A stretch of 64,000 nucleotides of DNA from Halorussus halophilus. GTDB taxonomy: Archaea > Halobacteriota > Halobacteria > Halobacteriales > Haladaptataceae. Below are positions 10,396-53,700 of this stretch, piece after piece. Location: assembly GCF_008831545.1 (NCBI RefSeq), contig NZ_CP044523.1, positions 806,001 through 870,000 on the forward strand, in the 5' to 3' direction. The position numbers and the translations under genes are program-made. The notes below the pieces were generated by a model. That model did no database searches and had not been told where the DNA came from. It saw nothing but the letters and a program-made list of their open reading frames with translations. Positions within the stretch are counted from its first letter, which is position 1; every line of letters starts with the position of its first letter.

Positions 10396-10490
10396 GATTC
10401 GTACCCACCACGCCTGTCAGCATATCGTTTGGTCTCAGTTCGACGCTCTCGGCTCCCTGAAATATCTGGTGAGTGGGTAGCTGAACCCAG

Positions 10491-27952: not shown

Positions 27953-27981
27953 TTATCCGCCGAACATCTCGCGCATGTTCG
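27953..27981. repeat. attL: secY-end repeat and complete recombinase core
   Basis: 27,953-27,976 equals the secY 3' end. Within and beyond it, CGAACAT (27,961-27,967), a 7-base spacer CTCGCGC and ATGTTCG (27,975-27,981) form a perfect inverted repeat, the arm-spacer-arm layout of tyrosine recombinase core sites. The outer arm at 27,977-27,981 is not in secY, so it is element-derived. Confidence 0.85.
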
Positions 27982-28020: not shown

Positions 28021-29298
28021 ATGACGAACATAAACGATACCAACAACGTCACGGGAAAACTCGAAAGGCAGTGGGAACTCCTCGAAGAAGCCGAAATCGA
28101 CGAGAGGGACCGCGAAGCGATCCGAGAATTCGTCGAACTCCACCGCCGGAGCGTCGAAAACTGTGCGCCGAATACGCTGATTAACGATCTCACGAACCTT
28201 CGAATGGCGTCCAAACGTGCAGAGACGCCACTCCGCGAGATGGACATGAAAGGCGTCCGAAAGTTGCTTTCGGCGTTGACGACACCAAAGAATCGGGGTG
28301 GATACGGACTGGACCCGGACGGTGGGGGAATTTTCGGCTACAAACGTGCTCTTCGAGTGTTCTTCGACTGGTTGGACGATGACCCCGACTACGGTGACTA
28401 CGAGTTCGCGGAGCGTATCGAACTGCCGTCCCAACAAACCGATCGTGTTGGCGAGGACCAGATGCTGGAACCGTCCGAGGTCGAAAAGTTGAAGGAAAAG
28501 GCTCGGAACCCGAGAGACCGAGCATTGATCCAATTCTTGGCCGACACCGGTGCTCGCATTTCGCTGGCGTCTCAGCTTCGAGTCGGGGACATCCACGATC
28601 TCGATACTAATCGTCCGACGTTCACGCCGAATCCCGATGGACGCGGGCACAAGGGCGCGCCAGACAAGAATTACCCTATCCTGTATAGCCGAGCGGAACT
28701 TCGAGCGTATATCAACCAGCATCACGTCGACACCCGCCCCGAAGCACCGCTTTGGCACGTTCTTCGTGGGTACGACCACGAGAACCCACAAGAGAGTGCA
28801 GTCGCTGCAGATAGAATCCGAGACATGCTTCGAGAGTGTCGAAGACGGACGGACATCGACAAGCGCGTGACTCCGCACACTTTCCGCCATACCGCACTGA
28901 CCCGCTTGTCGAGAGCAGGTCACAGCCCCCAAGAGATAATGCACATCGCGGGATGGGCCGATGAGCGCATGCTCGAGCGATACGACCATACTTCCGACGA
29001 AGAGCGCAACGAACGACTGCGCGCGGAAGCAGGCTTCATCGACGAACCGGAAGTCGGAACCAACCCACCTACGCCGAAGACGTGTACGAACTGTCGGGAG
29101 AAAGTCGGTCCCGAGGCGCGGTTCTGTCCAACGTGCGGGAGTCCGGTCACCGATGACGCTCGAAATGCGGTACAGCGACAAGAAGACGAGTTCTTCGAGT
29201 CGGCGGCACGCACTGACGAGTTGGTCGAGGAAGTACAGCAGGTCCGCCAACTGCTCCACGAGTTTCCCGCGCTTCGGAGCGCGGTGACCGACTGCTGA
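28021..29298 (+). CDS. Tyrosine recombinase / integrase with C-terminal zinc ribbon
   Basis: 425 residues. An N-terminal SAM-like core-binding domain (about 15-125) precedes the catalytic domain. Visible catalytic residues: Arg179 (TGARISLASQL), H286-x-x-R289 (HTFRH), Trp312 in the His/Trp position (AGWADE) and Tyr321 (LERYDHT) as nucleophile. A zinc ribbon follows (CTNCREKVGPEARFCPTCG) with a short helical tail, a common haloarchaeal integrase extension. Position next to attL marks it as the enzyme that integrated the element into secY. All catalytic residues are intact, so excision may still be possible. Confidence 0.93.
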   Translation: MTNINDTNNVTGKLERQWELLEEAEIDERDREAIREFVELHRRSVENCAPNTLINDLTNLRMASKRAETPLREMDMKGVRKLLSALTTPKNRGGYGLDPDGGGIFGYKRALRVFFDWLDDDPDYGDYEFAERIELPSQQTDRVGEDQMLEPSEVEKLKEKARNPRDRALIQFLADTGARISLASQLRVGDIHDLDTNRPTFTPNPDGRGHKGAPDKNYPILYSRAELRAYINQHHVDTRPEAPLWHVLRGYDHENPQESAVAADRIRDMLRECRRRTDIDKRVTPHTFRHTALTRLSRAGHSPQEIMHIAGWADERMLERYDHTSDEERNERLRAEAGFIDEPEVGTNPPTPKTCTNCREKVGPEARFCPTCGSPVTDDARNAVQRQEDEFFESAARTDELVEEVQQVRQLLHEFPALRSAVTDC

Positions 29299-32908: not shown

Positions 32909-35110
32909 GTGCGTTTCTATGTTCCTGAATGGGACGACAATGTCGATGCCAACTACGATTTCATTCATGACGAACACTCTACCTTGGGGACGGAAGAGCG
33001 CGAACTCCAGTACATCTGGGACATTTTCGACTACGAGACGACCCCGATTGACGGAGTTCTCATTTCACGCGAGCAAGTAGAGGAAAGTCAGAGCAAGCTC
33101 GATAATCTAACAAAGTACGGAGTGTACCATCCCGATTCTCGACTTCATATACCCGATTGGCTCCCTACGATCAGCGACTGCGGTGCTTGGGGGTACAAAT
33201 CTCTCCCGTTCCCGCCGTACGGAAACAGCGAGATGCTGGATTTCTACGAAAAGATGGACGTCACTGTCGGGGTGACTATTGATCATCTCGTTCTCGGTTC
33301 CGGAAAAGAAGGCCGTCTGTACTTGGACAAGCGAGCCTTCAAAGACAGCAAAATCACTCAGTCTGACCTTCCGGAATCGCTGACCAACGAAGTTGACGTA
33401 ATGGTTGATGAGTGGCCTGAAGAATGGCCCGAATACGTTGCCGACTATGAAGAGTCGATTTCGGATGTAGATTCGGTTATACCGTTTAGTAAATCCGTCT
33501 TCGACGGAAGTCCGTCGGAGATCATCGCAGCGTTGGAAGATGACCCACGAGCAGTCTTCCGCGACGATGATACGCGATTCCGATACGATTTGACCTTGAA
33601 AAACGCCGGAGAGATGAAGGAACTCTACGATAGTGGAGACTACTCATTCCGGTTGATGGTAGCTATTCAAGGATGGGACGCCGACTCGTATGCGAAAGCA
33701 ACGCTTGAAGTCCTTGAACACGACTACCAGTACGTCGGAATCGGTGGTGTTGCGGGGAGTCCGGTTGACGATGTTCGTGACATCGTCACTGCCGTGGGAA
33801 ATACCGTGAAAAGGCATGAACGTTCGCGAGGGACTCGAGTTGACACTCACGTTTTCGGATTCGCGAAGACCAATGCCTTCGAGTCGGTCGGTCGAACCGG
33901 AATGACGAGTTTTGACAGCGCGAGTATGCTCAGATCCGCTTGGACCGGCGGAGATAACTACCATCTCGACAGCGACCACCGATACGACGCACTTCGCGTC
34001 CGCTTTGGGACGAATCGAGATACTCTGAAAGAAGGGATCGAAAAAGCACTTCGCGGCCAAGAGTTGCTCCACGCGCTTCGAGCATTCGACGCTGACGCGT
34101 CAATATCCGACGCGATTAGTGAATGGCGTGCGACGGCAGAGCAGGCTCTCGATGGTCTTCTACCATACATAGAACAGCACGACCTTGGTGAGAAGTACGA
34201 CTATCGACTCCTTCGAGACATTGAGGACGAGTTCCGTGACGACTACGAATTCGGTCGTGCACTCCGGGCGAACTTTAGTCGAAAATTCCGGCGACGGATC
34301 GTCAAGCTACTTCGAGCTTCCGAGACAGACGATCCACTCGAAGAGTATGAGTCCCTGGTTGAAACAGCCAGAGCGATTTTCGAAGAGTTCCCGAAATCGC
34401 TCGACGTAGTCACAGAGTTGGAAGACCATGAGGGTGAAGTTGCTACCTTCGAACAGATTCAACGAGTAGTCGAGAACTACGTCACGGCGGATGTAATTGA
34501 CGACGAGGAGTATTTAGATGCCTACGAAGAACTACTCCGGACCGAACCGTGGCACGACTGTGATTGCCCTATTTGCGAGAATTTAGGGATCGAAGTGGCG
34601 GTGTTCCGAGCGAACAACCGTAATCGTCGACGTGGATTCCACAACACGAGACGGTTCTACGATGAATTTGAAGATGATCTCCCGAAACTCTTGGTCGCAG
34701 CCCCCGCGACAGACACACTCACTGACGAGCCGACAGTCGAGGATTATCTCACCGAAGAGCATTCTGAGTTCTGGACAGAAACTCACGATCTTCCGGTAGC
34801 AGAACTCGGGGTGTTGACTGCCAACGGTTTCCGTGAATGGTGGAAAGATACGCCAGACACAGTATCGTTCACGTCTCGTGAAATGGCAGAATCCATGTCC
34901 GAACGCTGCGCTCGATACCAGAATTTGTATCTCTATGACCCTGAGAAACGTATTTCTAATTCAGACGTCGAACAGATAGAGGACAGAGGTTGTACGGTCC
35001 ATCTGTACGAATCGAGCGATGCCATTCGGAAAGCAGTACTAGACCGTCTTGGCTATGAAGCCGAATTTGTGCCAAAACGAGCAGTACAAGCTGGGTTGGG
35101 AGAGTTCTAA
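32909..35110 (+). CDS. dpdA: DpdA-type DNA-guanine transglycosylase
   Basis: 733 residues, GTG start (RFYVPEWDDNVDANYDF). TGT-fold enzyme of the family that swaps guanine in DNA for a 7-deazaguanine base (preQ0-type). Visible: Asp90 in SDCGAWGY (the DSGGF position of TGT), Asp125-His126, Asp336 in SFDSASMLRSAWTGG (nucleophile position), and a zinc site Cys551-x-Cys553-x2-Cys556 ... His578 in CDCPICENLG and NRNRRRGFHNTRRFY, the DpdA hallmark as I recall it. Far longer than tRNA TGT. Haloarchaea make preQ0 for archaeosine, so substrate should be available. The DUF6884-like gene follows after 2 bp. Confidence 0.85.
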   Translation: MRFYVPEWDDNVDANYDFIHDEHSTLGTEERELQYIWDIFDYETTPIDGVLISREQVEESQSKLDNLTKYGVYHPDSRLHIPDWLPTISDCGAWGYKSLPFPPYGNSEMLDFYEKMDVTVGVTIDHLVLGSGKEGRLYLDKRAFKDSKITQSDLPESLTNEVDVMVDEWPEEWPEYVADYEESISDVDSVIPFSKSVFDGSPSEIIAALEDDPRAVFRDDDTRFRYDLTLKNAGEMKELYDSGDYSFRLMVAIQGWDADSYAKATLEVLEHDYQYVGIGGVAGSPVDDVRDIVTAVGNTVKRHERSRGTRVDTHVFGFAKTNAFESVGRTGMTSFDSASMLRSAWTGGDNYHLDSDHRYDALRVRFGTNRDTLKEGIEKALRGQELLHALRAFDADASISDAISEWRATAEQALDGLLPYIEQHDLGEKYDYRLLRDIEDEFRDDYEFGRALRANFSRKFRRRIVKLLRASETDDPLEEYESLVETARAIFEEFPKSLDVVTELEDHEGEVATFEQIQRVVENYVTADVIDDEEYLDAYEELLRTEPWHDCDCPICENLGIEVAVFRANNRNRRRGFHNTRRFYDEFEDDLPKLLVAAPATDTLTDEPTVEDYLTEEHSEFWTETHDLPVAELGVLTANGFREWWKDTPDTVSFTSREMAESMSERCARYQNLYLYDPEKRISNSDVEQIEDRGCTVHLYESSDAIRKAVLDRLGYEAEFVPKRAVQAGLGEF

Positions 35111-35112
35111 CT

Positions 35113-35817
35113 ATGCGAATCCTGATTATTGACCAGTGTTCCGGGTCGAAGAAGTATCCAAACGAACTGACGGAGTTCGGGGAAGACGTTCTCGATGAGA
35201 ATTCTCTGTCGGAACTCCTGGAGCGGGATGATACTCTCGGAATCGAAGCTCGGGAGTTGTACGATGGGCGGCAACAGCAGAAAATCGATGAAGCGGTCCA
35301 AATGCTGGAGAGAAACGGTCACGACGTAGCTCGGTATTACGTTAGTGCTGGCTTCGGTGTTGTCCACGAGCGAGATTCACTTCCCCCCTATGAAGTGACG
35401 TTCTCAGAGATGTCCAACTCCGAAATCGATTCTCGGGCAGAACAACTCGATATTCCATCCGATATTCGTGATCTCTTACAGTCGGACTCTTCCTACGATC
35501 TAGTGTATTTCGCTCTCGGCAGTGATTATTATCGGAGTATCGAGCTAGAGGCTACATTAGAGCAGTTAGCCAAGGATACCATGGCTATCGTGTTTAACAA
35601 CGAAGAGACTGCAGAGATGTTCCAGAACGTAGTTTCTATCCCAGCCCGGACCGAAGATGCAGAGCGATTCGGAACTATCGTAGTTGCATTGAAAGGGGTC
35701 TATCTCAAGAATTTAGCACGTGAACTAGGCTCGGACGAGATTACTGACGTTGCAGAAATAGCAGAGTATTGTAGATCAGAGCAGTCGTCACAATCCGGAT
35801 TTGGGGAATTCACTTGA
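35113..35817 (+). CDS. DUF6884/YaaA-like partner of DpdA
   Basis: 234 residues starting ILIIDQCSGSKKYPNEL, then IEARELYDGRQQQK, YVSAGFGVVHERDSLPPYEVTF and LVYFALGSDYYRS. The pattern (Cys-Ser-x-x-Lys, A-x-E-L-Y, S-A-x-x-G-V, P-Y) is that of the DUF6884 group, related to YaaA. It starts 2 bp after dpdA stops, so the two are an operon. A role in processing the inserted deazaguanine base or in binding modified DNA is a guess from the coupling. Confidence 0.6.
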   Translation: MRILIIDQCSGSKKYPNELTEFGEDVLDENSLSELLERDDTLGIEARELYDGRQQQKIDEAVQMLERNGHDVARYYVSAGFGVVHERDSLPPYEVTFSEMSNSEIDSRAEQLDIPSDIRDLLQSDSSYDLVYFALGSDYYRSIELEATLEQLAKDTMAIVFNNEETAEMFQNVVSIPARTEDAERFGTIVVALKGVYLKNLARELGSDEITDVAEIAEYCRSEQSSQSGFGEFT

Positions 35818-35964: not shown

Positions 35965-36762
35965 CTAGATACAATCAAGACAAATCGCTTCCAAATTCGA
36001 TCTTGCGAATCCACCACCATCTTGTACCTTTCTTATTGTTAAGAAACAATCTTTTCCCCCGCAAATAGCACACTCACTATCATTAGAATTTATGACGTAA
36101 TAGTAAACTTCCATTCTATGTTTCTCTGGAATATCTGTGATGTTTGATGCCGCATATTTCATTTCCTTCTTCACATCTACACCCAAACCCCTTCCCTTAC
36201 CACGATTACAAAACGAACATAAAATTTGAAGATTATCAGGGTCATTAGTGCCAAAACTTGATACAGGCTCGATGTGATCAATGTGAGGTATTGGCTTATC
36301 TGGACCAAGTTCTCGTATACAATCTCCTGTGAATTTTGTTCCACGGAATGATATGTGACAATTCGCGCACCGATATTCTTGGTCCGTTAGGAGTGTGTCT
36401 TTTTGATGAGCGACTGTACCGCGCTGTGCATCCCATGAGTCAAGTATATTATGAAGGTCTCTTGACAATCTATCAACAATATTACGGTCATATCCTAACT
36501 CGTTAGTTAGATAATCTCGAATTATCTCATGGCGAGGAAGAGGATTTGTTTTTTTATAATCAATTGCTTCTGCTGGGCACAGATGCATAGCAAGGCGTAG
36601 TCTAAATTCGTAGATCTCCTTTTTATTTAATTGCGCTTCTGACCCAACTACATCTATTGCTTTTTTAATTGCGTGTTCCTTATCACGGTCATCAATCTCC
36701 TTCAGATCCTTTCGATCACCGAAAAGGAGACGATAGAAGAGAATATCAATGGAATCTTGCAT
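35965..36762 (-). CDS. HNH endonuclease, AT-rich, paired with DGQHR gene
   Basis: 265 residues. Helical N-terminus, then an HNH core: YRCANCHISF, IPHIDHIEPVSSFG, NDPDNLQILCSFCNRGKG. A second cysteine cluster at the C-terminus (CAICGGKDC, LEAICLDC) suggests another zinc site. Its start lies 8 bp after the stop of the DGQHR gene, so the two form an operon. Codon use is much more AT-rich than the dpd-like genes around, pointing to separate acquisition. Probably a restriction nuclease. Confidence 0.75.
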   Translation of the reverse strand: MQDSIDILFYRLLFGDRKDLKEIDDRDKEHAIKKAIDVVGSEAQLNKKEIYEFRLRLAMHLCPAEAIDYKKTNPLPRHEIIRDYLTNELGYDRNIVDRLSRDLHNILDSWDAQRGTVAHQKDTLLTDQEYRCANCHISFRGTKFTGDCIRELGPDKPIPHIDHIEPVSSFGTNDPDNLQILCSFCNRGKGRGLGVDVKKEMKYAASNITDIPEKHRMEVYYYVINSNDSECAICGGKDCFLTIRKVQDGGGFARSNLEAICLDCI

Positions 36763-36770
36763 TCCTTAAA

Positions 36771-38225
36771 TTATGATTCGCGAAAGAGGCCCAACTTCCC
36801 TATCTGAGCACCGGCCATCGCTTTCTCCATTTGTTCTTTGAAATATTCACGGCCATCAGATGTGTCCAGCCCGGATTCCTTCCACTCTTCGGTGAAGAAT
36901 CGTTCGGGGAGGTCGTCTAGAACACTTTCGACGCCGTCCTTCAAATTCTCGTGGTTCTTAAACAATGGATCTCGATCGAAGTCACGATACGTTCGATCAG
37001 TCGACCGTAATCGCTCCAATACTAATTCTTGTAGTTTTAGTAATGCCACTTTTTGGAAAAGTTGTCCGCCTTCACTTTTGACAGTATTTTCCCAAGTATC
37101 GTTGTAGGTGCCTTTAACACCTTCCCAGAAAGCATAGAATGTAGAGAGACGATAATCATAGCCTTCTTCTCCGCCTTCTTCCTCCCATTCCGCAATGTCA
37201 GCATAGAGTTGACTAAAACGATTATCCCTGTATTTTACGTCCATTTTGACGAATTTCGTGACAAGTTGGAAGGCAACGTTTTCTTTTAAGAAGCCTTGGC
37301 TCTCCTCAAAACCGAAGTCGACAAGACCCTTAAACGGAGAGTCTTCATCAGTATGCATCCGCCAAGTAAGTTGAGCCTCTTCCGCTCTTACACCTGCTGT
37401 CCGGAATCGTTGATATAGGTCCTTGATTTCTTCATTTGACAAAGAAGTAGAGATAGTCGCTCTCAGTTCGCGTGGTCGTAGAGGTTTGGCTTTGTTGTTC
37501 ACAACGTAGAAATGGTAGACTTGCTCAGCTTCATCCATGCCCGGCATTAGGACAATGGGGAACTGAACATCGAAATCAGCCACTTCTTTTGCCCCAAACA
37601 CTCGGTGTTGGCCGTCGAGGATTTTACCAGGTCTAGAAACACCCTTTACGTAATCGATGATTGCTTCCTTCCTAGTGTCATCAAGATTATTGATATTTTC
37701 GTTGGCTTGTTTTAACTCAGCAGTGATTTCTGCCAAATATGAGGACGGTGGGCCTTCCTCTTCGTCCATATCCAGATCCTCTTCCAAATCTGACCCATCA
37801 TCAACGAATTTCTTCTCATCTACCCCTAGTCGGCCATAAAATTCGTTATATGTTTGTTCTATAAGTTTCCCTGTACTCTTCTCTTCATTCTTAATTTCAA
37901 TCTCAACGGTTTCGCCTCTGTCCGAGACTTCAACAGAATCGGAATCAGCAGCGACAAGGATGGCTCCAGGAATGATATTATTATCCGATTTCTCTAGATA
38001 CTCTTTGATATTGTCAAGCCGATTCTCATTTAAGTCTCGTTGATAGCCAGCAAGAAAATCAGCCTTTTTCCTTGGGACGTCTGCCCATTTAAGCAATTCA
38101 GCGGCTTTGACATTCGTCATATAGAGGGGTGGTGAAGAGATGTTTCCTCCGGTTTTTTGCTGGACTTTTATTCCTTGATAGGAGTAAGTAGAGTCGTCGC
38201 CCGTTTGCGTTTCCTCGGAAGTCAT
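36771..38225 (-). CDS. DGQHR (DndB-like) protein
   Basis: 484 residues. The DGQHR motif sits at 204-208 (GKILDGQHRVFGAKE), followed by PIVLMPGMDEAEQVYHFYVVNNKAKPLRPRELRATIS, the family's second conserved block. The family includes DndB, the regulator of phosphorothioate modification, and ParB-like fold proteins. In the bacterial Dpd pathway a ParB-like protein, DpdB, works with DpdA. This gene could fill that place or belong with its HNH partner as a separate module. It runs opposite to the dpd-like genes and is AT-rich. Confidence 0.75.
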   Translation of the reverse strand: MTSEETQTGDDSTYSYQGIKVQQKTGGNISSPPLYMTNVKAAELLKWADVPRKKADFLAGYQRDLNENRLDNIKEYLEKSDNNIIPGAILVAADSDSVEVSDRGETVEIEIKNEEKSTGKLIEQTYNEFYGRLGVDEKKFVDDGSDLEEDLDMDEEEGPPSSYLAEITAELKQANENINNLDDTRKEAIIDYVKGVSRPGKILDGQHRVFGAKEVADFDVQFPIVLMPGMDEAEQVYHFYVVNNKAKPLRPRELRATISTSLSNEEIKDLYQRFRTAGVRAEEAQLTWRMHTDEDSPFKGLVDFGFEESQGFLKENVAFQLVTKFVKMDVKYRDNRFSQLYADIAEWEEEGGEEGYDYRLSTFYAFWEGVKGTYNDTWENTVKSEGGQLFQKVALLKLQELVLERLRSTDRTYRDFDRDPLFKNHENLKDGVESVLDDLPERFFTEEWKESGLDTSDGREYFKEQMEKAMAGAQIGKLGLFRES

Positions 38226-38665: not shown

Positions 38666-39700
38666 ATGCTGTACAGACAACGGACACTCAACCTCCCACA
38701 CGGAAATCTCGAAACACCGGTCTTACTTCCGGTGAGAAACGTGGGAAAACGGTCAAGCGATAACACTCCCGAATACGCTGGGACTATCCCTGACCTATCT
38801 ACGGCGATTGTGAATGCCCGCTCGATTTATCAACGAGACCCGATGTGGGAGCGACTACTGGATGGAGTTACACTTCGGGAAGAGATGGGAGTACCAGATA
38901 ACACGATAGTATTCGCAGATAGCGGTGGGTTCGATTTCCAAAATGATGCTCCTGACGTAGCCCCAAAAGAGATGCTTGCGGTGCAAAAGCAACTGAACGC
39001 GGATATTTACGGGACTATCGATATCCCCCTCTTGCGTGAAAACCGAGACGCAGAGAACCAACGAAGAATACGACAAAACATCGAATACGCGCTTGATGCA
39101 AGCAGCGCTCACGATGGAAAAGGTCTCCTTCTTGCCAGTGTCCACGGTTTCGACCCCGCAACGATTCGGAACAGCATCCGGCACTTAGAGCGTAACGGTG
39201 AGTTCGATGGGTACGCGCTCGGTAGCCTCGCACTCATCCGAACTGACTACCGAAAGACGACGAAGTTGATACTCGCCGCGCGGCGGGCCACAGACAAACA
39301 CCTGCACGTGTACGGTCTAGGCGGAATCGTCTACCAACCTCTCCTGTTGTATTTAGGAGTGGATAGCTTTGACTCGTCAGCATTCATCCGGGCAGCAGGC
39401 AATCGAAACTACTTGATCCCGGGTTTCGGTGGCGAAGAGCTCCAAAATATCGACCACTTGGAGTATCTGCCCTGTCCCTGTCCCATTTGCGGCACCCGAA
39501 CTCTTGATGAAATACGAGAGAACCGGGATCTCCTGACGAAACATAACCTGTGGTCGATTGTCGCCGAACTCCGGCGGTTCCGGTATGTATTCGCCGCGGG
39601 CAAGGATATTGAAGCCTATCTCGATCTTCGGTTTCAAGGGAACGAGGTCACACAACGAGCGTATCGAATTGCCAAACAACAGATGAGGAGACTCGTATGA
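38666..39700 (+). CDS. Second TGT-fold protein (short transglycosylase)
   Basis: 344 residues, about the size of tRNA-guanine transglycosylase. TGT marks: TPVLLPVRN near residue 17, Asp85 in FADSGGFDFQ, YALGSLAL, LHVYGLGG, Asp236 in SFDSSAFIRAAGNRNYL (nucleophile position), zinc ligands Cys270, Cys272, Cys275 (CPCPICGTRT) and His293 (KHNLW). It lacks the PUA domain of archaeal tRNA TGT and the long DpdA tail. It overlaps the next gene by 4 bp, in an operon with a winged-helix protein and an ATPase. Substrate could be DNA or RNA. Confidence 0.75.
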   Translation: MLYRQRTLNLPHGNLETPVLLPVRNVGKRSSDNTPEYAGTIPDLSTAIVNARSIYQRDPMWERLLDGVTLREEMGVPDNTIVFADSGGFDFQNDAPDVAPKEMLAVQKQLNADIYGTIDIPLLRENRDAENQRRIRQNIEYALDASSAHDGKGLLLASVHGFDPATIRNSIRHLERNGEFDGYALGSLALIRTDYRKTTKLILAARRATDKHLHVYGLGGIVYQPLLLYLGVDSFDSSAFIRAAGNRNYLIPGFGGEELQNIDHLEYLPCPCPICGTRTLDEIRENRDLLTKHNLWSIVAELRRFRYVFAAGKDIEAYLDLRFQGNEVTQRAYRIAKQQMRRLV

Positions 39701-40584
39701 CGTCTGAACGACCGACTGTTCGGCCAGTCACGCTTCCACGGTTGGTCGAACTCGTGTACCTTTGCGGGAACTCAACTCAGAGTACAGACGAAGTCGAAGT
39801 AGCACTAGACGTCACACACAGACGTGCTCGGGAGACGATTCTCGAAGTACTCCGCATCGGACTGATTCTTGAACCGTCCGAGGATACGTACGAAATATCT
39901 GCAGCTGGTAGAGAGTTCCTTGATGCCGTACTTGATGAAGTCTGGGAAGACGTCAGCGGGGTTTTGGCTACTCAGAGTCCGCACTACGGATTGTTCCTTC
40001 GGGTACTCGAAGATGACGGAGCGTGTCCCTTAGACGAGTTACTGGAGAATCTATCGGTAGCAGCCGAGAAGACAGACTATACGTTCAATCAAACCGGAAT
40101 CGAAGTACTCGGGGACTGGTCGGAACGACTCGGATCCGTGCAACGGAATGCGTTTACAGGGGACTATTATTCCGTTGAGCGTGAAGAAATAACGCCAGAG
40201 TTCCAATCGACACTTCTCGAAGTGTACGATGAACTCGAGGAAACTACCGGAGTGAACCTTCGGCAACGCTATATTTCGATTCCGAAGCTTCGAGAGTGGA
40301 CATGCGAACGCCTTCGATGTCGAAGATCGGTCTTTGATGACTATTTGGTTAGACTCTGCGAGCAGAACATTGGCAAGCTGGAACTATCCGGTGCACCACT
40401 CGACACGGAAGCGAAGAAGTCTGCGCTCGGAATCAAGCAAATCGAACTCGCAGAAGCAGATACACTCGTTTCGACGTCGCAATCGACGGACCGTGTCATG
40501 AGTGGAGTGACACAGTTCGACAAACAGTACTATTATCTAGCGATCTACGACCGCAACCTCACCGATAAACTACACCAACAATGA
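39697..40584 (+). CDS. Winged-helix protein of the short TGT operon
   Basis: 295 residues. The N-terminus looks like a winged helix (LPRLVELVYLCGNSTQSTDEVEVALDVTHRRARETILEVLRIGLI); the middle is helical, and a second HTH-like block is at IPKLREWTCERLRCRRSVFDDYLVRLC. It overlaps the TGT gene by 4 bp and the ATPase gene by 4 bp. No catalytic motif. A DNA-binding adaptor for the ATPase is the simplest reading. Confidence 0.55.
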   Translation: MTSERPTVRPVTLPRLVELVYLCGNSTQSTDEVEVALDVTHRRARETILEVLRIGLILEPSEDTYEISAAGREFLDAVLDEVWEDVSGVLATQSPHYGLFLRVLEDDGACPLDELLENLSVAAEKTDYTFNQTGIEVLGDWSERLGSVQRNAFTGDYYSVEREEITPEFQSTLLEVYDELEETTGVNLRQRYISIPKLREWTCERLRCRRSVFDDYLVRLCEQNIGKLELSGAPLDTEAKKSALGIKQIELAEADTLVSTSQSTDRVMSGVTQFDKQYYYLAIYDRNLTDKLHQQ

Positions 40585-41738
40585 CGAACCAAGGCTTCAC
40601 GATCACCGACCAGAAACGCGACTATTCACGATTCGGTCTAGAAGAAAACCCGTTCCCGTTCAGTCCGGTTCCGCGAGAGAATCCACGTATTTACTGCGGA
40701 CAGGAACACGTAGTCGATACGGTTAGCTCGACGGTCTCGACCGTGCTATCGTCCGGGAAATCGAAGCATCTCGTGATAACCGGAAAATATGGGAACGGAA
40801 AGTCGCATACGCTCAAGTACACCCGTTCGTTGCTCCGGGACCGAGACGATATCGTTGTCGGGTACGTTTCGCAACCGGGTGAAGGATTTGTCGATCTCTA
40901 TCACGAGTTCGTGTACGATCTGGGTTTTGAGAATCTGCAGAAAATCGCGTACGAGTACTTGGCCGCAGTCGCGCGAGATGTCACCGAAACCGATCCGAGT
41001 GGATCAAGTTCGATGGAGTCGCTCATCGATGAGGGAGAAGTACTTCTTTCCGACTTAGTTCCCCCCGCCATTCGCCGTCTGAGCGATGTCACACAGTTTG
41101 CGGACTTTGCGCGGGCTCTCGTCCATATGGTGTACGAGGATACCAACCTCTACGCATGGCAGTGGTTAACTGCAGAAGGAATCCGCTACGAACAGCGCAA
41201 AGAAATGGAGATTCACACTGCACTCGACGATGATACGATGGGTGTCCGTGCCTTTACCGCGATAAAGAACGTTCTCCTCGATCTCGGGTATACTGGTGTT
41301 TTCGTTTTCGTCGACGAATTCGAGAGTATAGCACGGTTGAATACAAAAGACGAGCAGTCTATCCTGAATAGCATTCGCCATCTAATGGACCAGAACAGTG
41401 AAGGACTCTGTATGCTGTTCGGATGTGCGCCAGAAGTCTGGCAGGACGTGATGAGCGAATATCACGCGTTCTCGGAACGAATTGGCCAAGAAGTAGCACT
41501 TCGACCATTGACCGATGAGCACCTTACTGATCTCGTTGGTCATTACCTAGAGACAGCCCGGGGTTCGGAAGACAGTGGTACAGATCCATTCACCGAGGAC
41601 AGCTTGGAAATAGTATTGCAACGCTCACAGGGTAATATTCGACAGGTACTCGTGCTCTGTAGCAACGTCCTCGACAAAGCGATTGAGCAAGACCGGTCGG
41701 CTATCGATAAGGATCTGGTCCGCGAGATCACTTTCTGA
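40581..41738 (+). CDS. AAA ATPase of the short TGT operon (BrxD-like)
   Basis: 385 residues. FGLEENPFPFSPVPRENPRIY leads into a P-loop ITGKYGNGKSHTL (Lys74) and a Walker B VFVFVDEFES (Asp245, Glu246). A sensor-like region follows (GLCMLFGCAPEVW) and a C-terminal helical lid (DSLEIVLQRSQGNIRQVLVLCS). This resembles ORC/Cdc6- or BrxD-type loader ATPases. Third gene of a tight operon with a TGT-fold enzyme and a winged-helix protein. Confidence 0.75.
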   Translation: MTNQGFTITDQKRDYSRFGLEENPFPFSPVPRENPRIYCGQEHVVDTVSSTVSTVLSSGKSKHLVITGKYGNGKSHTLKYTRSLLRDRDDIVVGYVSQPGEGFVDLYHEFVYDLGFENLQKIAYEYLAAVARDVTETDPSGSSSMESLIDEGEVLLSDLVPPAIRRLSDVTQFADFARALVHMVYEDTNLYAWQWLTAEGIRYEQRKEMEIHTALDDDTMGVRAFTAIKNVLLDLGYTGVFVFVDEFESIARLNTKDEQSILNSIRHLMDQNSEGLCMLFGCAPEVWQDVMSEYHAFSERIGQEVALRPLTDEHLTDLVGHYLETARGSEDSGTDPFTEDSLEIVLQRSQGNIRQVLVLCSNVLDKAIEQDRSAIDKDLVREITF

Positions 41739-45712: not shown

Positions 45713-48700
45713 ATGACATCTCTTCCGCTTTCCGAGGACGAGTTCATCCATCAACTCGAAGAAGCCAATCGGGAGCGGTTCAAGGACGAAGACTGGTCGT
45801 TTAACGAACGCCAACGGAATGCTATCCTTGCCGGGAACGGACCACTCTGGATTACCGCAGGTCCAGGCAGCGGAAAGACTGAAGTCTTGATTTCTCGGAC
45901 CTTGAAGCTCATACTCGCCGATGGAGTCCAGCCTGGGAGTATCCTTCTCACGACGTTTACCGAAAAGGCAGCACAAAATCTGGAGGAACGAATAGTCGAC
46001 CGGCTTGAGAAACTCGGGTTCGAGGACGAAGTTGATGCGAACGATATCCGGATCGGTACGTTGCATTCACTCTGCAACGATATCACGCAAGAATATCGAT
46101 ATCCGGACTACGCAAACGTAGAGTTGCTCGATGAGGACGCCCAACAACTCTTCATGTACAACAACTGTGATTTCGTTTCTGTACTTCGCGGCAACGTCGA
46201 TACTGATGAGTGGGACACTGTTACTGGTGGAGAACTCACAGGGGACGCATGGCGTTTCTTCGATGAGGTTCTCCCACGTGGAGTTAGTTCGCAGTACGGT
46301 CCGAACAAGTGGCAGGCGACTGGGACCGCCGCAAAATTGTTTAACCGGATCTCTCAGTATCGAGCCAGCACCGATTCGCTACGACGGTCACCCCAACCAG
46401 AGTGGCGAGTCTGTGCTGAAGGACTTGAGCGGTATCGGGAGACGCTTCGTGAAAACCATCGATGCGACTTCGCTCGGTTATTAGAACAATTCGTTGACTT
46501 CATCGATAGCGAAAGTGGTCAGCGGTTCATCGATGGAGAACCTGACCGGGAACGTCCACCCTTAGAGCACGTGTTAGTAGATGAGTATCAAGACACGAAT
46601 CCACTCCAGGAGGAACTCTACTTCCGTCTTGTTGAAAAACTCGATAGCCCGAATATCACCGTTGTGGGCGATGATGATCAAGCCCTCTATCGATTCCGCG
46701 GTGGGACCGTAGAGTGCCTAATTCGGTTCCCTGATCGCGCTAAAGATCACTTCGAGACCTCTGTCACAAAGGAACAACTGCGAACCAACTACCGCTCCAC
46801 GGAAGATATCGTTTCCTGGTGTAACCGATATATTGGGGACTATCCGTTGATGCAGCGGGAAGGTGCCCGAGCCTCAAACAAAGAACCCATGATAGTTGCC
46901 CGTGATGAGACTGAAGGTCGAGAAAGTGTTCGGTCTCTTCTGGTTGGGAACAGCGACAAACAATCGGCTGAGACTGCTGCAGAATTGGTGGAACGAATTC
47001 ACGATGAGGGATATATCGAGGACTACAGTCAGGTTGCATTCTTATTTAAAAGTACGAAGGAGAGTTCTCGTTGGGCTGGACGATACGTCGAAGCTCTCCG
47101 AGAGCGCAATATCCCTGTTCATAACCCTCGGAACAAAGCGTTTCTGAAGCAGGATGAAATCGAATTTGCTCTAAGTGCGGTTATTCGGTGTGTTGATCCG
47201 GATCTGGAAGGTACGGACGCCGCGAATGTTCGTGGCCGTGTCCGTAACCAAATCAATCGCTGGTCAGATAAATTCGAGGACTATATTGACGAATATGCAG
47301 CGAACGATCTCGATAACTACGTCCGGCGGAAACGGCGTGAACTAGAACGAGCTGACGGCAAGGAATCTCTGGGGTATACGCTTCTAGAACTTCTTTATCG
47401 AATTCTCTCATTCAACCCATTCCAACAGTGGATTGAAGATCCAGACCACCCCGAGCGAGGGAAGCGACTGGGCCAACTTACGAAGTTGTTCGACTCCTTC
47501 GCGAGCGTTACGGGTCCGGAGCATATGCAGAAGTCATCTCGGACACTATCGGTATCGACTCGCTTCCTCGGGAGCTTTTACTACGTCTTCTGTGGGTATC
47601 TCGAAGCTTCGAGTTTCGATGAACCGGAGGATCCACACGACCAGATTCCCACAGGCTTCGTCCAAATGATGACCGTCCATCAGGCCAAAGGATTAGAATT
47701 CCCTGTCGTTTTCGCCAGCGATCTCGATAGCGAGCCCTGGATGAGCGGAACCTACTGGCTCGAAAACCAACTTACACCATACGCAGAGATCGAACCTTCC
47801 GGAACTTCCGAAGACAGAGCAGAACGAGACGAAGTTAGACGTTTCTACGTCGCCTACTCACGAGCGGAAGAGGACCTTCTCCTCCTCGATAACGAGAACG
47901 CCACTACAAACATTTCTCTCGGATACCATGAGAGTGGGCAACCGCTCTCCGAAAATTGGTTCAAGGGAAGTCGAGAGCTCAATGCTGCTGAAGACTTTCT
48001 CAACCGAGTGGGTGGGAGCGTTGGCCCTCACCGTGAGGTAGGTCTCAAACGCCGATATAGCATCACGGGCGATGTATTGGCGTACCGCCGTTGCAAACGT
48101 CAGTATGGGTACTACAACGAGCTAGATTTCGCACCAAATCACGTCACACAACTCTTCTTTGGGCGAGTCGTTCACGAAACTCTGGATCGGGCGCATCGTC
48201 ATTACGCCGGTGATATCGACGGTGCCACCGAGGGTGAAGTACCGACGGATGATGACATCGAGAAGTACTTCACTGAGGTTTCTGAGGCGTTGAAAGCACG
48301 GAATATCTATCCTATGAGTAAGGAAGCAGAGGAGACCGCTTTGGACTATATTCAGCGATTTAACCGAAAGGAGGGTGCACGACTCTATCCTCGTGTTATC
48401 GATACGGAGCATCGACTTCAAAGCAACCGTGACGATTTCGTGTTAGAAGGTGTCGTCGACGTTTTGGCCGGGGACGATATCGACGGTTACGAAATCTGGG
48501 ATTACAAAGCGGGACAGCGTCCGGATGGGGGAAGAGAATTAGATGACTACCAAGCTCAACTAAACACCTACGCGGAATTGTACCGGTACCAGCAGGGAGA
48601 GTATCCAGATCGAGGTGTAATTTACTTCCTCGGCGAAGAGTCGAGAGACGACGCGGTATTCCAACTCGAGTTCGAGCAAGGGTCCGTCGAGAGCTCTCTC

Positions 48701-48859
48701 AGTGCTTTCGAACAAACTGTTACGAGTATCGAAGATGACCGTGAGCAACGGAACTGGTTCAATATCACCCCTGGTGATGCACCGTCGAACCAAACGTGTG
48801 CAGAGTGCGATATTCGGTGGAATTGCCCTGCCCGTCCCGAATACCACGGGAATCAATAG
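45713..48859 (+). CDS. UvrD-type helicase fused to Fe-S RecB-family nuclease
   Basis: 1048 residues. SF1 helicase motifs: Q-motif FNERQRNAIL, Walker A AGPGSGKTE (Lys55), motif II LVDEYQDT (Asp290, Glu291), III VGDDDQALYRFRGG, IV LRTNYRS, V TVHQAKGLEFPVV, VI FYVAYSRAEEDLLLL. Nuclease: Asp916 (EGVVDV), Asp930-x-Lys932 (IWDYKAG), then YQAQLNTYAELY. Cys794 (YRRCKRQY) with Cys1029, Cys1032 and Cys1038 (CAECDIRWNC) form an AddB/Cas4-type 4Fe-4S staple. It unwinds and cuts DNA. Probably a restriction or degradation effector of the island. Confidence 0.92.
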   Translation: MTSLPLSEDEFIHQLEEANRERFKDEDWSFNERQRNAILAGNGPLWITAGPGSGKTEVLISRTLKLILADGVQPGSILLTTFTEKAAQNLEERIVDRLEKLGFEDEVDANDIRIGTLHSLCNDITQEYRYPDYANVELLDEDAQQLFMYNNCDFVSVLRGNVDTDEWDTVTGGELTGDAWRFFDEVLPRGVSSQYGPNKWQATGTAAKLFNRISQYRASTDSLRRSPQPEWRVCAEGLERYRETLRENHRCDFARLLEQFVDFIDSESGQRFIDGEPDRERPPLEHVLVDEYQDTNPLQEELYFRLVEKLDSPNITVVGDDDQALYRFRGGTVECLIRFPDRAKDHFETSVTKEQLRTNYRSTEDIVSWCNRYIGDYPLMQREGARASNKEPMIVARDETEGRESVRSLLVGNSDKQSAETAAELVERIHDEGYIEDYSQVAFLFKSTKESSRWAGRYVEALRERNIPVHNPRNKAFLKQDEIEFALSAVIRCVDPDLEGTDAANVRGRVRNQINRWSDKFEDYIDEYAANDLDNYVRRKRRELERADGKESLGYTLLELLYRILSFNPFQQWIEDPDHPERGKRLGQLTKLFDSFASVTGPEHMQKSSRTLSVSTRFLGSFYYVFCGYLEASSFDEPEDPHDQIPTGFVQMMTVHQAKGLEFPVVFASDLDSEPWMSGTYWLENQLTPYAEIEPSGTSEDRAERDEVRRFYVAYSRAEEDLLLLDNENATTNISLGYHESGQPLSENWFKGSRELNAAEDFLNRVGGSVGPHREVGLKRRYSITGDVLAYRRCKRQYGYYNELDFAPNHVTQLFFGRVVHETLDRAHRHYAGDIDGATEGEVPTDDDIEKYFTEVSEALKARNIYPMSKEAEETALDYIQRFNRKEGARLYPRVIDTEHRLQSNRDDFVLEGVVDVLAGDDIDGYEIWDYKAGQRPDGGRELDDYQAQLNTYAELYRYQQGEYPDRGVIYFLGEESRDDAVFQLEFEQGSVESSLSAFEQTVTSIEDDREQRNWFNITPGDAPSNQTCAECDIRWNCPARPEYHGNQ

Positions 48860-49002: not shown

Positions 49003-49833
49003 GTGGAATCCGGTCTGACATCTCTTACGAACCAATCGTACGCGAAATTGATTGTGATTAGGGATTCGTATGTCGGAGAACACAGCCATGAGCAGAGGGC
49101 TCAGCTACGAAGTCTGCCACTCCTAATCGAATATGGATTCGATCGGGTGATCCATACAGAGCTATGGGATAACGACTTCAAGCCAGTAGCCTACACCCAT
49201 CTGAGTCCAAAGGAAATCGACCCGGAGACAATTGAGTTTCCATTGGTACACGTCGTTAGCCAGGAACAACTCGTAGACTATAATCAACAGCATCTCGTCC
49301 GCTCACTTCTGAAAAGCCGTGGCAAGGATGATGTCTATATTGTCGTAACAGATACAAACGCACCCAGAACACCAGCATACACCCCTGAGAGATCATTCGT
49401 TGACGAATTCACTCCGAACAAGAATATCGACTTTGAGAGTCGAGTCACCGAGTATATTCAGAAGAACCTCGATTCCGCCCTTCCAGTGTCGAACAATCGA
49501 GGTTCGAAAAATCTCTACTATCATCAAATCTCACACCATCACAAAGCCGTCGGTGCTCCAGCGAGTTCCCTTCCAGAACTCTTCGATTACAACAATGCTC
49601 CACCAGAAAGTCCAGCGTGGAAACCATTGTACTACTTTGTGGAACATGATTTGGACGCAGTTCTCGACAAGTATACCGAGCGTATTCGTGAGGCACTACG
49701 TTCGTGGACCGAACGGGGCGACGTACAACGAATTGCAAGTAACATGGACCGAATGTTAAACCGGTGTCAGTACCGAGCGGATCGCCTTGATAACCAACGC
49801 GACGAAAACGCAAAACTATACGATAATGCCTGA
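49003..49833 (+). CDS. Hypothetical protein, first gene of the dpdGHIJ-like operon
   Basis: 276 residues, GTG start. The N-terminal half looks like an alpha/beta domain (YAKLIVIRDSYVGEHSHEQRAQL, GFDRVIHTELWDND, FPLVHVVSQEQL, DDVYIVVTDTNAP). The middle has YYHQISHHHKAVGAPASSLPELFDY. The C-terminus is helical. Bacterial dpd clusters carry a phospholipase D-like dpdK near this place, but no complete HxK(x4)D motif is present, so that name is not supported. It overlaps the next gene by 8 bp. Confidence 0.55.
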   Translation: MESGLTSLTNQSYAKLIVIRDSYVGEHSHEQRAQLRSLPLLIEYGFDRVIHTELWDNDFKPVAYTHLSPKEIDPETIEFPLVHVVSQEQLVDYNQQHLVRSLLKSRGKDDVYIVVTDTNAPRTPAYTPERSFVDEFTPNKNIDFESRVTEYIQKNLDSALPVSNNRGSKNLYYHQISHHHKAVGAPASSLPELFDYNNAPPESPAWKPLYYFVEHDLDAVLDKYTERIREALRSWTERGDVQRIASNMDRMLNRCQYRADRLDNQRDENAKLYDNA

Positions 49834-50725
49834 GTACCAACAAAACCAGGGGAAACCCGAGCGGCTTCTGGCAGGATATGGCAGTGTTCGAAGTGCAGAA
49901 CTCAAAACAATTTACGAGGGAATCGATGAAGGAACACCTATCTCTCAGATTGAGGAACGATATGGTCGTCCGCAAGAGAGCGGATACGAGACGGACCACA
50001 TCGATCAGTGTCTCAGGTTCCTGAGGACACTTGACATGATTGAGGAGACAGATGACGAGTCTCTAAATCCGCTTAACCAAGATCTCTTTTCGAACTTCGA
50101 CCTCTCATTCGAATCCCGACTGCTGTATCACATCCGGAAACAGTCTGGTAGGCAGTATCACTTAGCAGAAATCCACGAAGTGGCTGTTGAGAAATTAGGA
50201 GACGAAGGTCACTATGGAACACGCCGAGTCTCCGTCGAGGACTTAGTTACTGAATCCCGCCGCAACACAGAATACGATTTCAAATGGCGCGAAGAGAAAA
50301 TCGAAATGTGGGCAAATCTCCTCGCACCCGTCGGTGCTGTGTCTTATGTCACAAGCAGGGATGAAATTTTCATTTCGCCAAGTCGCGCTCTTCTCCACGA
50401 ACTTCTTGCCCTTCACCAGCAGCATCGAGACGATGGTGATAGCCTGCTGGCCGCATTAAAATGGATTCATTCAGAATTTCTCCCGGTTTTCAGCAGAACT
50501 GGCGGTGACCCTGCTGTGCACGTTGGGGTTGCAGATACCTTCGAGAGCATGGTAGAGGACAACCTCCTCACATTAACCGGAATGTCCGACAGAACGGAAA
50601 CCGTCGACCTTCCAGATTCTATCGACAATACACGAACGCCCGCAGACTACACAATCGATGATTCACCCGATCGTCCGTCGTACTGGTATCCGCTCGAGCG
50701 CAATGAACGGAGGCTCAAAGCATGA
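49826..50725 (+). CDS. DpdG-like helical/winged-helix protein
   Basis: 299 residues from MPEYQQNQGKPERL; an earlier in-frame ATG exists at 49,787 but the overlap start fits better. Mostly helical with a winged-helix-like front (GYGSVRSAELKTIYEGIDEGTPISQIEERYG, LRFLRTLDMIEE). No catalytic residues. Size and position directly before a roughly 1000-residue P-loop ATPase match bacterial dpdG as I remember it; the equivalence is inferred, not shown. Stop overlaps the ATPase start by 4 bp. Confidence 0.5.
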   Translation: MPEYQQNQGKPERLLAGYGSVRSAELKTIYEGIDEGTPISQIEERYGRPQESGYETDHIDQCLRFLRTLDMIEETDDESLNPLNQDLFSNFDLSFESRLLYHIRKQSGRQYHLAEIHEVAVEKLGDEGHYGTRRVSVEDLVTESRRNTEYDFKWREEKIEMWANLLAPVGAVSYVTSRDEIFISPSRALLHELLALHQQHRDDGDSLLAALKWIHSEFLPVFSRTGGDPAVHVGVADTFESMVEDNLLTLTGMSDRTETVDLPDSIDNTRTPADYTIDDSPDRPSYWYPLERNERRLKA

Positions 50726-53700
50726 CGAAGCTAAAGCGTAATTGGGACCGAGACGTCGTCGAGAAGTATATCAAACCTGAGTCGCAGCAAAAGACTCCCG
50801 AGGTCTTCCAGAAAACGCACGTCCCTATCGACAAGATTCAGGCTGAGATACTTCGCCCGCATAGCGGTGATGATGCATTTGTTACAGAGAAGCAGTTCCG
50901 TGACGCGGTGCTTGATTCTGAACTTGAAGATGATAACCGGATATTCATCGTCAAGGGCGAGGTTGGCAGTGGGAAGAGCCACCTCTGTCAGTGGTTAGAG
51001 TACGAAATAAATGGCTACGAAGATGGAGGCTACGATGAGACTCACGTTGCGGTTCACATCTCACGAAGCAATACTCGTCTTGACGAAATTCTCGAGATTC
51101 TTCACGAACCCATCAGCAAGGACTACGAAGAAGTTAGTGATGTCTCGGCTTTAGATCCAATCGAGGTTGCAGACTTCATCATCCAAGGGCTGCGGACGTT
51201 TTACAAGGACAAGAGTTCGCTTCGTTCCTTCGACCTCGATGCCTTCCTAAATGAGTACGACAAGAAGGACGACTTCCGATCGACGCTCATTGAGAATATC
51301 AAAGAATACCAAAAATCGGTTAATCAGGAAGGGAAAGAACAGAATATCAAGGAGTATCTTCTGTCTCGAGAAGACTACGGACGAATCTGTCTAAGCGCGT
51401 TCGGCAAGACGAAACGCGAAGACGATGTCTATCCATTCATTCGGCGAGCAGTCCATGACCTTCTGACGCGAAACATCGGAATCGAGGATTTCAAACGCGA
51501 GTTGGAAGAGATATCGGAAGCATACGTCGAAGAAGGGAAAAGACCGGTCCTCATCTGTGAGGATCTAACTACGTTCAGTGTGCTCAAGGATGATCTCCTT
51601 GATCACATCTTCGAACTATCCAGCGGCCACTTCGACGTGATTCTGGGTTGGACGACAGGGTGGGAACGAGAGAACATTGAGGATGCGTTGTCAACCAGTG
51701 AAGATTCGCTGACGTACATGAAACAGCGGACACAGGGTTACCTCAGTACTACAGACGACAGTGGTCAGGCCTACTTCCTTGAAGGGCGAAGTGCTCCCGT
51801 CGTCCTCGTTCGAAAATACCTAGAAGCGATCAAGGAGGACTCAAATGTAGACGTGAAAATTCCCGAGGAGGAATTCGATACAATCTATCCATTCAACGAG
51901 GCCTTCATCCATCACGTGTATGCAAATCTGGTAGAGGATGGCAATCTACAGCAGACTCCTCGAATTCTTCTAGTACATGTAATCGCGGATTGCCTCACCT
52001 CGGATGTTCCGCCGTTCCAAACAGTACAACCCGAATATAATTCCTACGTCAGAAGTCGTCCGTACCTCATTTCCATGAACGAGTATTCTGAGGCTTGCTT
52101 GGAACTTACACAGTGGTACGGGATGAACCATGAAGGGAGAATCTGGCTTCCTCAGGCCATTTTCGATGCGTTCGGTGTCGATACACATGAGAAGTCTGTG
52201 GAAGACGGGAACGTCTTCTTCGAAATGAGTTTTGCGCCAGATACAGACGTCATCAAGCGCTCCCCGGGGGACGAATCAGTTTCAACACCCATAGAAGAGG
52301 GCGAAGACGACCCAGATGAACCAGACAGAGCGAAGGAAAGTGGAGAGGACACCGAACAAGATGATGGATCTCAGGATTCTGAAGACGACGAAGACGACAA
52401 CGACACATCCTCAAAACAAACAGGGAAGATAGCAATACCGGGGGAAGACTATCGGGAGTTCCAAAGTTGGCTCCGAGACGGTACTGAATATGATAGTGTC
52501 GACCACTTCCGAAAAGGCGTCGTAGAGACCCTCGAACGGTGGTACGAACCCACTCGGCTTGCGAATGAAAACTCAACTGCCCGCACGACCGGGATTTACT
52601 ACGCCCGCGGTTCTGAACCGCCGGTGTTCGTCAGGGGTGCGGATACACGTTCTTCGATGAGTTTCGAGGTTCCACATGGCGCAGAACACGAGGATTTGTA
52701 CCGGCAGATGCTCCATTATGGATATGCGGAGTCATTCGAAGATACTGCGAACTTCGATCGACTTCGCGGTTGGGCCGACGATCAAGTTGTCGATTTCCGT
52801 CATCGGATGCGAGACGATATCGAAAATTGTCTCCCTGAGGAGATGACCGTTGAACAGTTCATCGTGCTCTCTCATTACCTGGTGATGAATATCGGAAAGG
52901 GGACTACAGAGATCACCCGTGAACTCGTATTCGAGAGTTATGAGCTACAAAAGTCGTCACCACTGAGTCACCACTCTAACGTAGACCTGAATTTACCCTC
53001 GGGCTTCGAGGGTGCGTTTGACCGTGTGGCGAACCACACTAAAGATATCCGACTGCTGTCGCAGGGTTTCTTCCTTCTGAAAGAGAACGTAGTTGACTAC
53101 GATAGACTGTCCGAGGCCGTTGAAGGGGTCTCTGAGAATCTGGATCAGTATATTAGCAGAATGGCAACGGTCAGTGTCGATAGTCTCGATGACGCCTATC
53201 GCCTGGGCACCTCTCACACAAATGCCGAGAAGAAGCTCTCGACGATAATCGAAGATGTGTCGGATTTAGCTGGAGAGTTAGAGAAAGTCGAACAACAGGT
53301 CGATCTCAAGGGGTTAAACGAATCTCTCGAAGAGTACCGTGAACTGCACAACATTGGTCACAATCCGCAGAAGCTCGGAGATTTCTATACAGAACTTGAG
53401 GGTTGTTTAGGCTCGTTGGATGTAACGCAACGCGAAAAATGGCGAGAGATCGGTCGACTGTTAGACGACGAAAATGCCGACTTAGATCTGGGTGGGTTTC
53501 GAAAGACGCTCAATACGATAGAGGATGCAGATGTGAAGAGTCCAATTTCGCTGATTGCCCTACTCCACACGTATCAACAAAGTCTCGACGAGCACTCGGC
53601 ATGGGACGTCTACAGTGCGCTCGGAGAGATGATTGAAGAACTCGAAGAGGCAAAGACACGTGATGTAGGGAGTTTCCGCAACCAAGTTCGTGAGTCCTCA

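What the first reader, a model, noticed from the sequence alone, without database searches (positions are those of the whole stretch)
32909..35817. DpdA-type DNA transglycosylase with a DUF6884-like partner in an archaeal island
The 733-residue protein has the TGT active-site aspartates (90, 336), zinc ligands (551, 553, 556, 578) and the NRNRRRGFHN block of DpdA. DpdA inserts 7-deazaguanine bases in DNA of bacteria and some viruses (established for Salmonella Dpd and phages; haloviruses are also reported to carry such bases). A cellular archaeal locus with a tightly coupled DUF6884-like gene suggests a different final modification from bacterial ADG.
Basis: partly seen in the sequence, partly recalled or inferred. 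Interest (0 to 1): 0.9.

Follow-up and report, generated by a model that had tools for sequence, protein, structure and literature searches.

The report
Archaeal DNA-base-marking defence island, two transglycosylases
A salt-loving archaeon carries a mobile 34-kb gene island that very probably swaps some guanines in its own DNA for a 7-deazaguanine base and attacks DNA lacking that mark; unlike the textbook bacterial version it always uses two base-swapping enzymes and an unusual ATPase.

Summary
Window 32909-35110 encodes a DpdA with all catalytic and zinc residues, and 35113-35817 encodes a DUF6884 protein. DpdA, DUF6884, a second TGT (38666-39700), a probable DNA-binding protein and a BrxD-like ATPase form a five-gene cassette, seen in 38 of 40 haloarchaeal loci. 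DpdA and the second TGT co-occur in 55 of 56 genomes each, out of 391. In 19 of 40 loci DpdA and DUF6884 are fused. QueD, QueE or a queuosine-precursor transporter lies nearby in 21 of 40. The true DpdB ATPase is absent. A DpdH/YprA-helicase restriction module occurs almost only with the cassette. Everything sits in a 34-kb element integrated at the secY 3' end, with a matching empty site in a relative. BRIGADE, published in 2025 as a Dpd-like system of halophilic archaea, is the nearest described class. The obligate second TGT, recruited separately in archaea and bacteria, and the replacement of DpdB appear new. No base has been measured.

The parts
27953..27976 (.). left 24-bp direct repeat (putative attL) TTATCCGCCGAACATCTCGCGCAT
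   Evidence: exact copy at 61997-62020; only this genome of 28 in the family has two copies; contiguous flanks (empty site) in relative G383
28021..29298 (+). tyrosine recombinase (integrase) just inside the left repeat
   Evidence: PF00589 1.5e-18
32909..35110 (+). DpdA, DNA-guanine transglycosylase
   Evidence: NF041059 267 bits; PDB 7UI4 1e-36; catalytic and zinc residues conserved in the 41-sequence alignment
35113..35817 (+). DUF6884 / DpdC-type domain protein, predicted preQ0 nitrile hydrolysis on DNA; invariant C9 and K13
   Evidence: PF21818 2e-06, PADLOC DpdC 1.2e-10; hhalign 99.7% to the N-terminal domain of Paenibacillus DpdA
35965..36762 (-). HNH nuclease, probable later insertion into the cassette
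   Evidence: PF01844 4e-11; GC 0.39; not conserved in the cassette
36771..38225 (-). DGQHR/DndB protein, only distantly DpdB-like, probable accessory
   Evidence: NF041060 77 bits against cut-off 300; in 2 of 40 cassette genomes
38666..39700 (+). second TGT (TGT2): archaeosine-TGT-like catalytic domain without the tRNA-binding C-terminal region
   Evidence: TIGR00432 133 bits against cut-off 350; Pyrococcus-type ArcTGT 1iq8 5e-22; D85, D236, C270/C272/C275, H293 invariant
39697..40584 (+). probable winged-helix DNA-binding protein (unnamed family)
   Evidence: in 38 of 40 cassettes; only weak HTH/MarR/MukF-type matches
40581..41738 (+). BrxC/BrxD-type AAA ATPase, proposed substitute for DpdB
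   Evidence: PF10923 66 bits; Walker A GNGKS and Walker B DEFE conserved
45713..48859 (+). UvrD-like helicase fused to a PD-(D/E)XK nuclease (candidate restriction nuclease)
   Evidence: PF00580 9.6e-54, PF12705 7.9e-19
49003..49833 (+). restriction-module protein of unknown fold
   Evidence: 34 of 35 haloarchaeal genomes with it also have the cassette
49787..50725 (+). restriction-module protein in the position of DpdG (homology not shown)
   Evidence: gene order compared with Enterobacter dpdG-H-(I)-J
50722..53763 (+). DpdH-like ATPase
   Evidence: PADLOC DpdH 4.8e-14; 38 of 39 genomes with it also have the cassette
53763..54539 (+). probable coiled-coil protein in the position of DpdI
   Evidence: weak coiled-coil-type matches; conserved in BRIGADE-like loci
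54536..60028 (+). YprA-family (DruE/DpdJ/DrmA-type) SF2 helicase, 1830 aa
   Evidence: PADLOC DruE1 2.2e-39, DpdJ 5.3e-33; 50% identical to the first helicase of Haloferax alexandrinus pBNX82-4
61997..62020 (.). right copy of the 24-bp repeat (putative attR) = last codons of secY (61997-63583, -)
   Evidence: secY 3' flanks aligned in relatives

Best explanation
This is a mobile Dpd/BRIGADE-type restriction-modification island. Proposed steps: (1) preQ0 comes from the cell's archaeosine pathway. (2) DpdA exchanges a guanine in DNA for preQ0. It works in an obligate assembly with a second transglycosylase, a probable winged-helix DNA-binding protein and a BrxD-like ATPase; these replace the DpdB ATPase of bacteria. 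(3) The DUF6884 (DpdC) protein, often fused to DpdA, converts the nitrile on DNA to the amide, giving dADG. (4) The UvrD-nuclease, DpdH-like ATPase and YprA helicase attack DNA without the mark. Shown here: family assignments, intact active sites, near-invariant linkage, fusions, preQ0-gene linkage, element boundaries. Inferred: chemistry on DNA, the identity of the base, complex formation, restriction.
For: DpdA above its curated cut-off with conserved active site. DpdA and TGT2 in 56 of 391 genomes each, 55 shared. Five-gene cassette in 38/40 loci. DpdA fused C-terminally to DUF6884 in 19/40, and N-terminally in Paenibacillus and cyanobacteria. All 24 DUF6884 relatives match DpdC. QueD, QueE or a queuosine-precursor transporter near 21/40 cassettes; in divergent G131 TGT2-wH-BrxD-DpdA-DUF6884 is followed by QueD-QueE. 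QueC and QueD present in the window's genome. DpdB over cut-off in 0/40 cassette genomes and in none of the 7 bacterial two-TGT records, but present with one-TGT Enterobacter dpd. Restriction module occurs almost only with the cassette. secY att repeats and empty site.
Against: No DNA nucleoside data exist for this or any cassette-bearing archaeon that I found. TGT2 derives from a tRNA enzyme lineage and its DNA activity is unproven. The window has one YprA helicase, where BRIGADE usually has two, and no PLD nuclease. Structure models were too weak to help: DpdA pLDDT 43; the DUF6884 model (pLDDT 65) has no confident PDB match.
Confidence: 0.75

Rival explanations
1. One reading: the DUF6884 partner makes a final base other than ADG, such as 2'-deoxyarchaeosine or dPreQ1.
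For: DUF6884 keeps an invariant C-x3-K motif (DQCSGSK; C9, K13) that resembles the PCSxKPY motif of archaeosine synthase ArcS, which attacks the same nitrile. Haloarchaeal virus HVTV-1 carries mainly dPreQ1 (PMC6884629).
Against: All 24 homologues match DpdC models. Profile comparison with ArcS found no significant homology. The same C-x3-K motif is in Enterobacter DpdC (LITTCTNGK).
Confidence: 0.13
2. TGT2 is not part of the DNA reaction but modifies tRNA or supplies a host function, and merely travels with the island.
For: It groups with archaeal tRNA TGT, not DpdA (100/100).
Against: The genome already has a full-length TgtA and ArcS. TGT2 lacks the C-terminal tRNA-binding region. It is present in 55 of 56 DpdA genomes, and a different second TGT is paired with DpdA in Paenibacillus and Deinococcus.
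Confidence: 0.1
3. The second TGT acts as an eraser or as a base-excising restriction effector rather than a modification partner.
For: TGT chemistry passes through a covalent abasic intermediate (general knowledge); its base pocket differs (invariant His160 where DpdA has Gln254).
Against: It is encoded with the modification genes even where the restriction module is distant or not found. Enterobacter DpdA, a modification enzyme, has His at the same place.
Confidence: 0.05
4. The island copy in this window is decayed or inactive.
For: The HNH/DGQHR pair interrupts the cassette between DUF6884 and TGT2; only one YprA helicase is present.
Against: All core genes are full-length with intact active sites; TGT2, wH and BrxD overlap as one unit, and another locus also splits the cassette there (L108: EVE and HTH genes in the same gap).
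Confidence: 0.08

Closest known systems
BRIGADE (Bell et al. 2025 preprint, PMC12458937)
   Same: Only in halophilic archaea; a predicted 7-deazaguanine gene cluster plus ARMADA-like YprA helicase and a PLD or PD-(D/E)XK nuclease. Relatives in Haloferax alexandrinus, Natronorubrum aibiense and G290 have tandem YprA helicases as described.
   Different: The window has one YprA helicase instead of the usual two. The main text does not describe the second TGT, the DpdA-DUF6884 fusion or the BrxD ATPase; its supplement could not be read.
Bacterial Dpd system (dpdA-K; Salmonella Montevideo, Enterobacter pPOL9A)
   Same: DpdA, DpdC-type domain, DpdH-like ATPase, YprA-type helicase; gene order (G)-H-(I)-J.
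   Different: No true DpdB, no DpdK/PLD match; an extra TGT, wH and BrxD-type ATPase; the helicase scores better with DruE than DpdJ.
Two-TGT dpd islands of Paenibacillus, Brevibacillus, Fontibacillus and Deinococcus (L106, L109, L111-L115)
   Same: DUF6884-DpdA plus a second TGT, a small protein and an ATPase; no DpdB over cut-off.
   Different: Their second TGT groups with DpdA, not with ArcTGT (one clade rejected, p 0.002); the small protein shows no detectable homology; the ATPase is DpdH-like.
BREX-Related Capture (BRC) systems (PMC12839542)
   Same: TGT together with BREX-type ATPases in a defence locus; no DpdB.
   Different: BRC has PglZ, DUF6079, DUF4007 and HerA; none was found among the island genes scanned.

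Membership tests
DpdA | score above NF041059 cut-off (200 bits) | tested here: met
   267.4 bits
DpdA | two catalytic Asp, CxCxxC...H zinc site, RNRRRGFHN block | tested here: met
   D90, D336, C551/553/556, H578 conserved in 41 sequences; aligned to 7UI4
DpdA | inserts preQ0 into DNA | not testable with these tools
   needs biochemistry or LC-MS
DpdC (DUF6884) | match to DUF6884 and DpdC models | tested here: met
   PADLOC DpdC 1.2e-10; Pfam 28.4 bits against 30 for the window protein, but all 24 relatives match both
DpdC (DUF6884) | converts dPreQ0 to dADG | not testable with these tools
   needs biochemistry
Bacterial Dpd system | DpdB above NF041060 cut-off (300 bits) | tested here: not met
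   77 bits, and an accessory pair in 2/40 genomes
Bacterial Dpd system | DpdH and DpdJ homologues | tested here: met
   DpdH 4.8e-14; DpdJ 5.3e-33, although DruE1 is better at 2.2e-39
Bacterial Dpd system | DpdK phospholipase-D nuclease | tested here: not met
   no PLD or DpdK match among the larger island genes scanned; small ORFs not all scanned
BRIGADE | halophilic archaeon with 7-deazaguanine cluster | tested here: met
   haloarchaeal relatives throughout; DpdA, DUF6884, TGT2
BRIGADE | ARMADA-like YprA helicase | tested here: inconclusive
   DruE-type profiles score above DpdJ, but no tree with the BRIGADE reference protein could be made
BRIGADE | usually two YprA helicases | tested here: not met
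   one in island and genome; two in relatives
BRIGADE | PLD or PD-(D/E)XK nuclease | tested here: met
   PF12705 domain in 45713-48859
ArcTGT/TgtA (for TGT2) | score above TIGR00432 cut-off and C-terminal tRNA-binding region | tested here: not met
   133 against 350 bits; protein ends after the catalytic domain
BREX BrxD | score above NF033438 cut-off (350 bits) | tested here: not met
   46.6 bits; only the broader PF10923 is met

The most novel reading that the evidence does not exclude
DNA 7-deazaguanine marking in cellular archaea, and in a branch of bacterial Dpd systems, is done by a two-subunit DNA transglycosylase: DpdA plus a second TGT recruited independently from ArcTGT in haloarchaea and from a DpdA-side lineage in Bacillota/Deinococcota. 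A BREX-type or DpdH-type ATPase powers insertion in place of DpdB.
Probability: 0.35. Interest if true: 0.8.

Novelty: new variant of a known kind. Interest (0 to 1): 0.62.

Why it matters
A 2026 paper (PMC13329287) lists 7-deazaguanines in the DNA of bacteria, phages and archaeal viruses, not in cellular archaea. Here about one in seven haloarchaeal genomes carries a complete predicted machinery, including strains from the tractable genera Haloferax and Haloarcula, so the question is directly testable. It also offers an answer to what replaces DpdB, and suggests that DNA base exchange can need two transglycosylases, as tRNA TGTs act as dimers. It may explain how HVTV-1, which lacks dpdA, acquires modified DNA in its host.

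Tried and rejected
Window DGQHR protein as the true DpdB: rejected (well below cut-off, in 2/40 genomes, lower GC). wH protein as homologue of the small Paenibacillus protein in the same place: no homology. DUF6884 as homologue of the ArcS domain: shared short motif only, profile comparison not significant. One origin for both second TGTs: rejected by AU test, p 0.002, though long branches are present. A viral origin for the cassette: no relative of DUF6884 or DpdA in viral contigs, only 26-29% TGT matches, and phage-record hits distant. Structure prediction of DpdA failed (pLDDT 43); the DUF6884 model gave no confident fold match. I considered equating TGT2 His160 with the 'histidine 196' of DpdA in PMC6884629; numbering did not let me confirm it, so it is not claimed. 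The three key Dpd papers (Thiaville 2016, Yuan 2018, Gedara 2023) were not held.

Full report
What is there. DpdA (32909-35110) scores 267 bits with the curated DpdA model (cut-off 200) and about 13 bits with general TGT models; phmmer's only PDB relative is 7UI4, a DNA-guanine transglycosylase. The next ORF starts two bases later and is a DUF6884 protein.

What DUF6884 means. The GATOR-GC survey (PMC11888242) gives DUF6884 as the Pfam domain of DpdC, the enzyme needed for dADG. All 24 archaeal homologues scanned match DUF6884 and PADLOC's DpdC. In Paenibacillus and Allocoleopsis the same domain is fused to the N-terminus of DpdA (hhalign probability 99.7%); in 19 of 40 haloarchaeal loci it is fused to the C-terminus. 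Fusion on either side argues for consecutive steps on one substrate. The simplest prediction is therefore dADG, as in bacteria, not a different base.

A search of 391 haloarchaeal genomes found DpdA in 57, one of them a marginal hit set aside. The second TGT, 38666-39700, is in 56; 55 genomes have both. In 38 of 40 fetched loci the genes DpdA, DUF6884, TGT2, a 295-aa probable winged-helix protein and a BrxD-type ATPase stay together. In the deep-branching G131 the order is changed, DpdA is a shorter bacterial-like form, and QueD and QueE follow directly. QueD, QueE or a queuosine-precursor transporter lies beside 21 of 40 cassettes (named examples), which ties the cassette to 7-deazaguanine. 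The window's own genome keeps QueC and QueD elsewhere and a normal TgtA and ArcS, so TGT2 is not needed for tRNA archaeosine.

The DpdB question. Bacterial Dpd needs DpdB, reported to be an ATPase required for preQ0 insertion (Gedara et al. 2023, from general knowledge and as summarised in PMC12839542; the paper itself was not held). The DGQHR protein at 36771-38225 is far below the DpdB cut-off, occurs in only 2 of 40 cassette genomes, and with its HNH neighbour has lower GC than the cassette, so it looks like a passenger. Paenibacillus, Brevibacillus, Fontibacillus and Deinococcus also pair DUF6884-DpdA with a second TGT, a small protein and an ATPase, and none of the seven has DpdB over cut-off, whereas single-TGT Enterobacter does. 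The bacterial second TGT groups with DpdA and the archaeal one with ArcTGT; a single clade of second TGTs is rejected (p 0.002; long branches call for caution). The second TGT therefore seems to have been recruited at least twice, which suggests a functional need for two transglycosylases. Both TGTs keep their catalytic aspartates and zinc site; TGT2 has an invariant His160 in 39/39 where DpdA has Gln.

Restriction side. The genes at 49003-60028 (unknown, unknown, DpdH-like, probable coiled-coil, YprA helicase) follow the order of bacterial dpd(G)-H-(I)-J. Two of them were searched across the 391 genomes: 34 of 35 genomes with the 49003 protein and 38 of 39 with the DpdH-like protein also have the cassette (Fisher p below 1e-32, not corrected for relatedness). 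The exception G003 has the module alone. The UvrD/PD-(D/E)XK protein at 45713-48859 is the likeliest nuclease.

The carrier. A perfect 24-bp repeat at 27953 and 61997, the latter being the last codons of secY, bounds 34,044 bp with an integrase just inside. Only this genome of 28 in its family has two copies, and in G383 the two flanks are contiguous. Near-identical DpdA copies in different haloarchaeal families and plasmid copies show recent transfer.

Place among known systems. BRIGADE (PMC12458937) is the nearest class and was reported only in halophilic archaea. The window fits except for having one YprA helicase. That paper's main text does not mention TGT or transglycosylase, and its supplement could not be read, so the novelty of the two-TGT cassette is provisional. 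Nothing here shows that any base is present in DNA.

Noticed in passing
27953-27976 and 61997-62020: Perfect 24-bp direct repeat; the right copy is the 3' end of secY. It bounds a 34-kb integrative element, with an empty site in relative G383.
   Followed up: yes
35965-38225 (-): HNH and DGQHR/DndB-like gene pair on the opposite strand inside the cassette, lower GC; a similar pair lies about 10 kb from the cassette in G162.
   Followed up: partly
L159 (Haladaptatus sp. YSMS36 plasmid) 8956-10977 and 11691-13655: Two further long plasmid-borne TGT-annotated genes (about 670 and 655 aa) outside this cassette: another haloarchaeal TGT group of unknown role.
   Followed up: no
L152 (G034): Decayed cassette: intact TGT2 followed by a truncated wH gene, next to a DUF7845 gene; DUF7845 also lies at the right end of the window's element.
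   Followed up: partly
L155 (G003:C1:530000-549999): DpdH-type restriction module without the modification cassette, the only such case in 391 genomes.
   Followed up: partly
L108 11576-12049; L107 7585-8088: EVE-domain or EVE-like genes near two cassettes, possible readers of the modified base.
   Followed up: no
42417-45134: 905-aa PQQ-type beta-propeller repeat protein inside the element, role unknown.
   Followed up: no
L050 7980-11525: DpdA-DUF6884 fusion with about 200 extra C-terminal residues of unknown nature (1182 aa).
   Followed up: no
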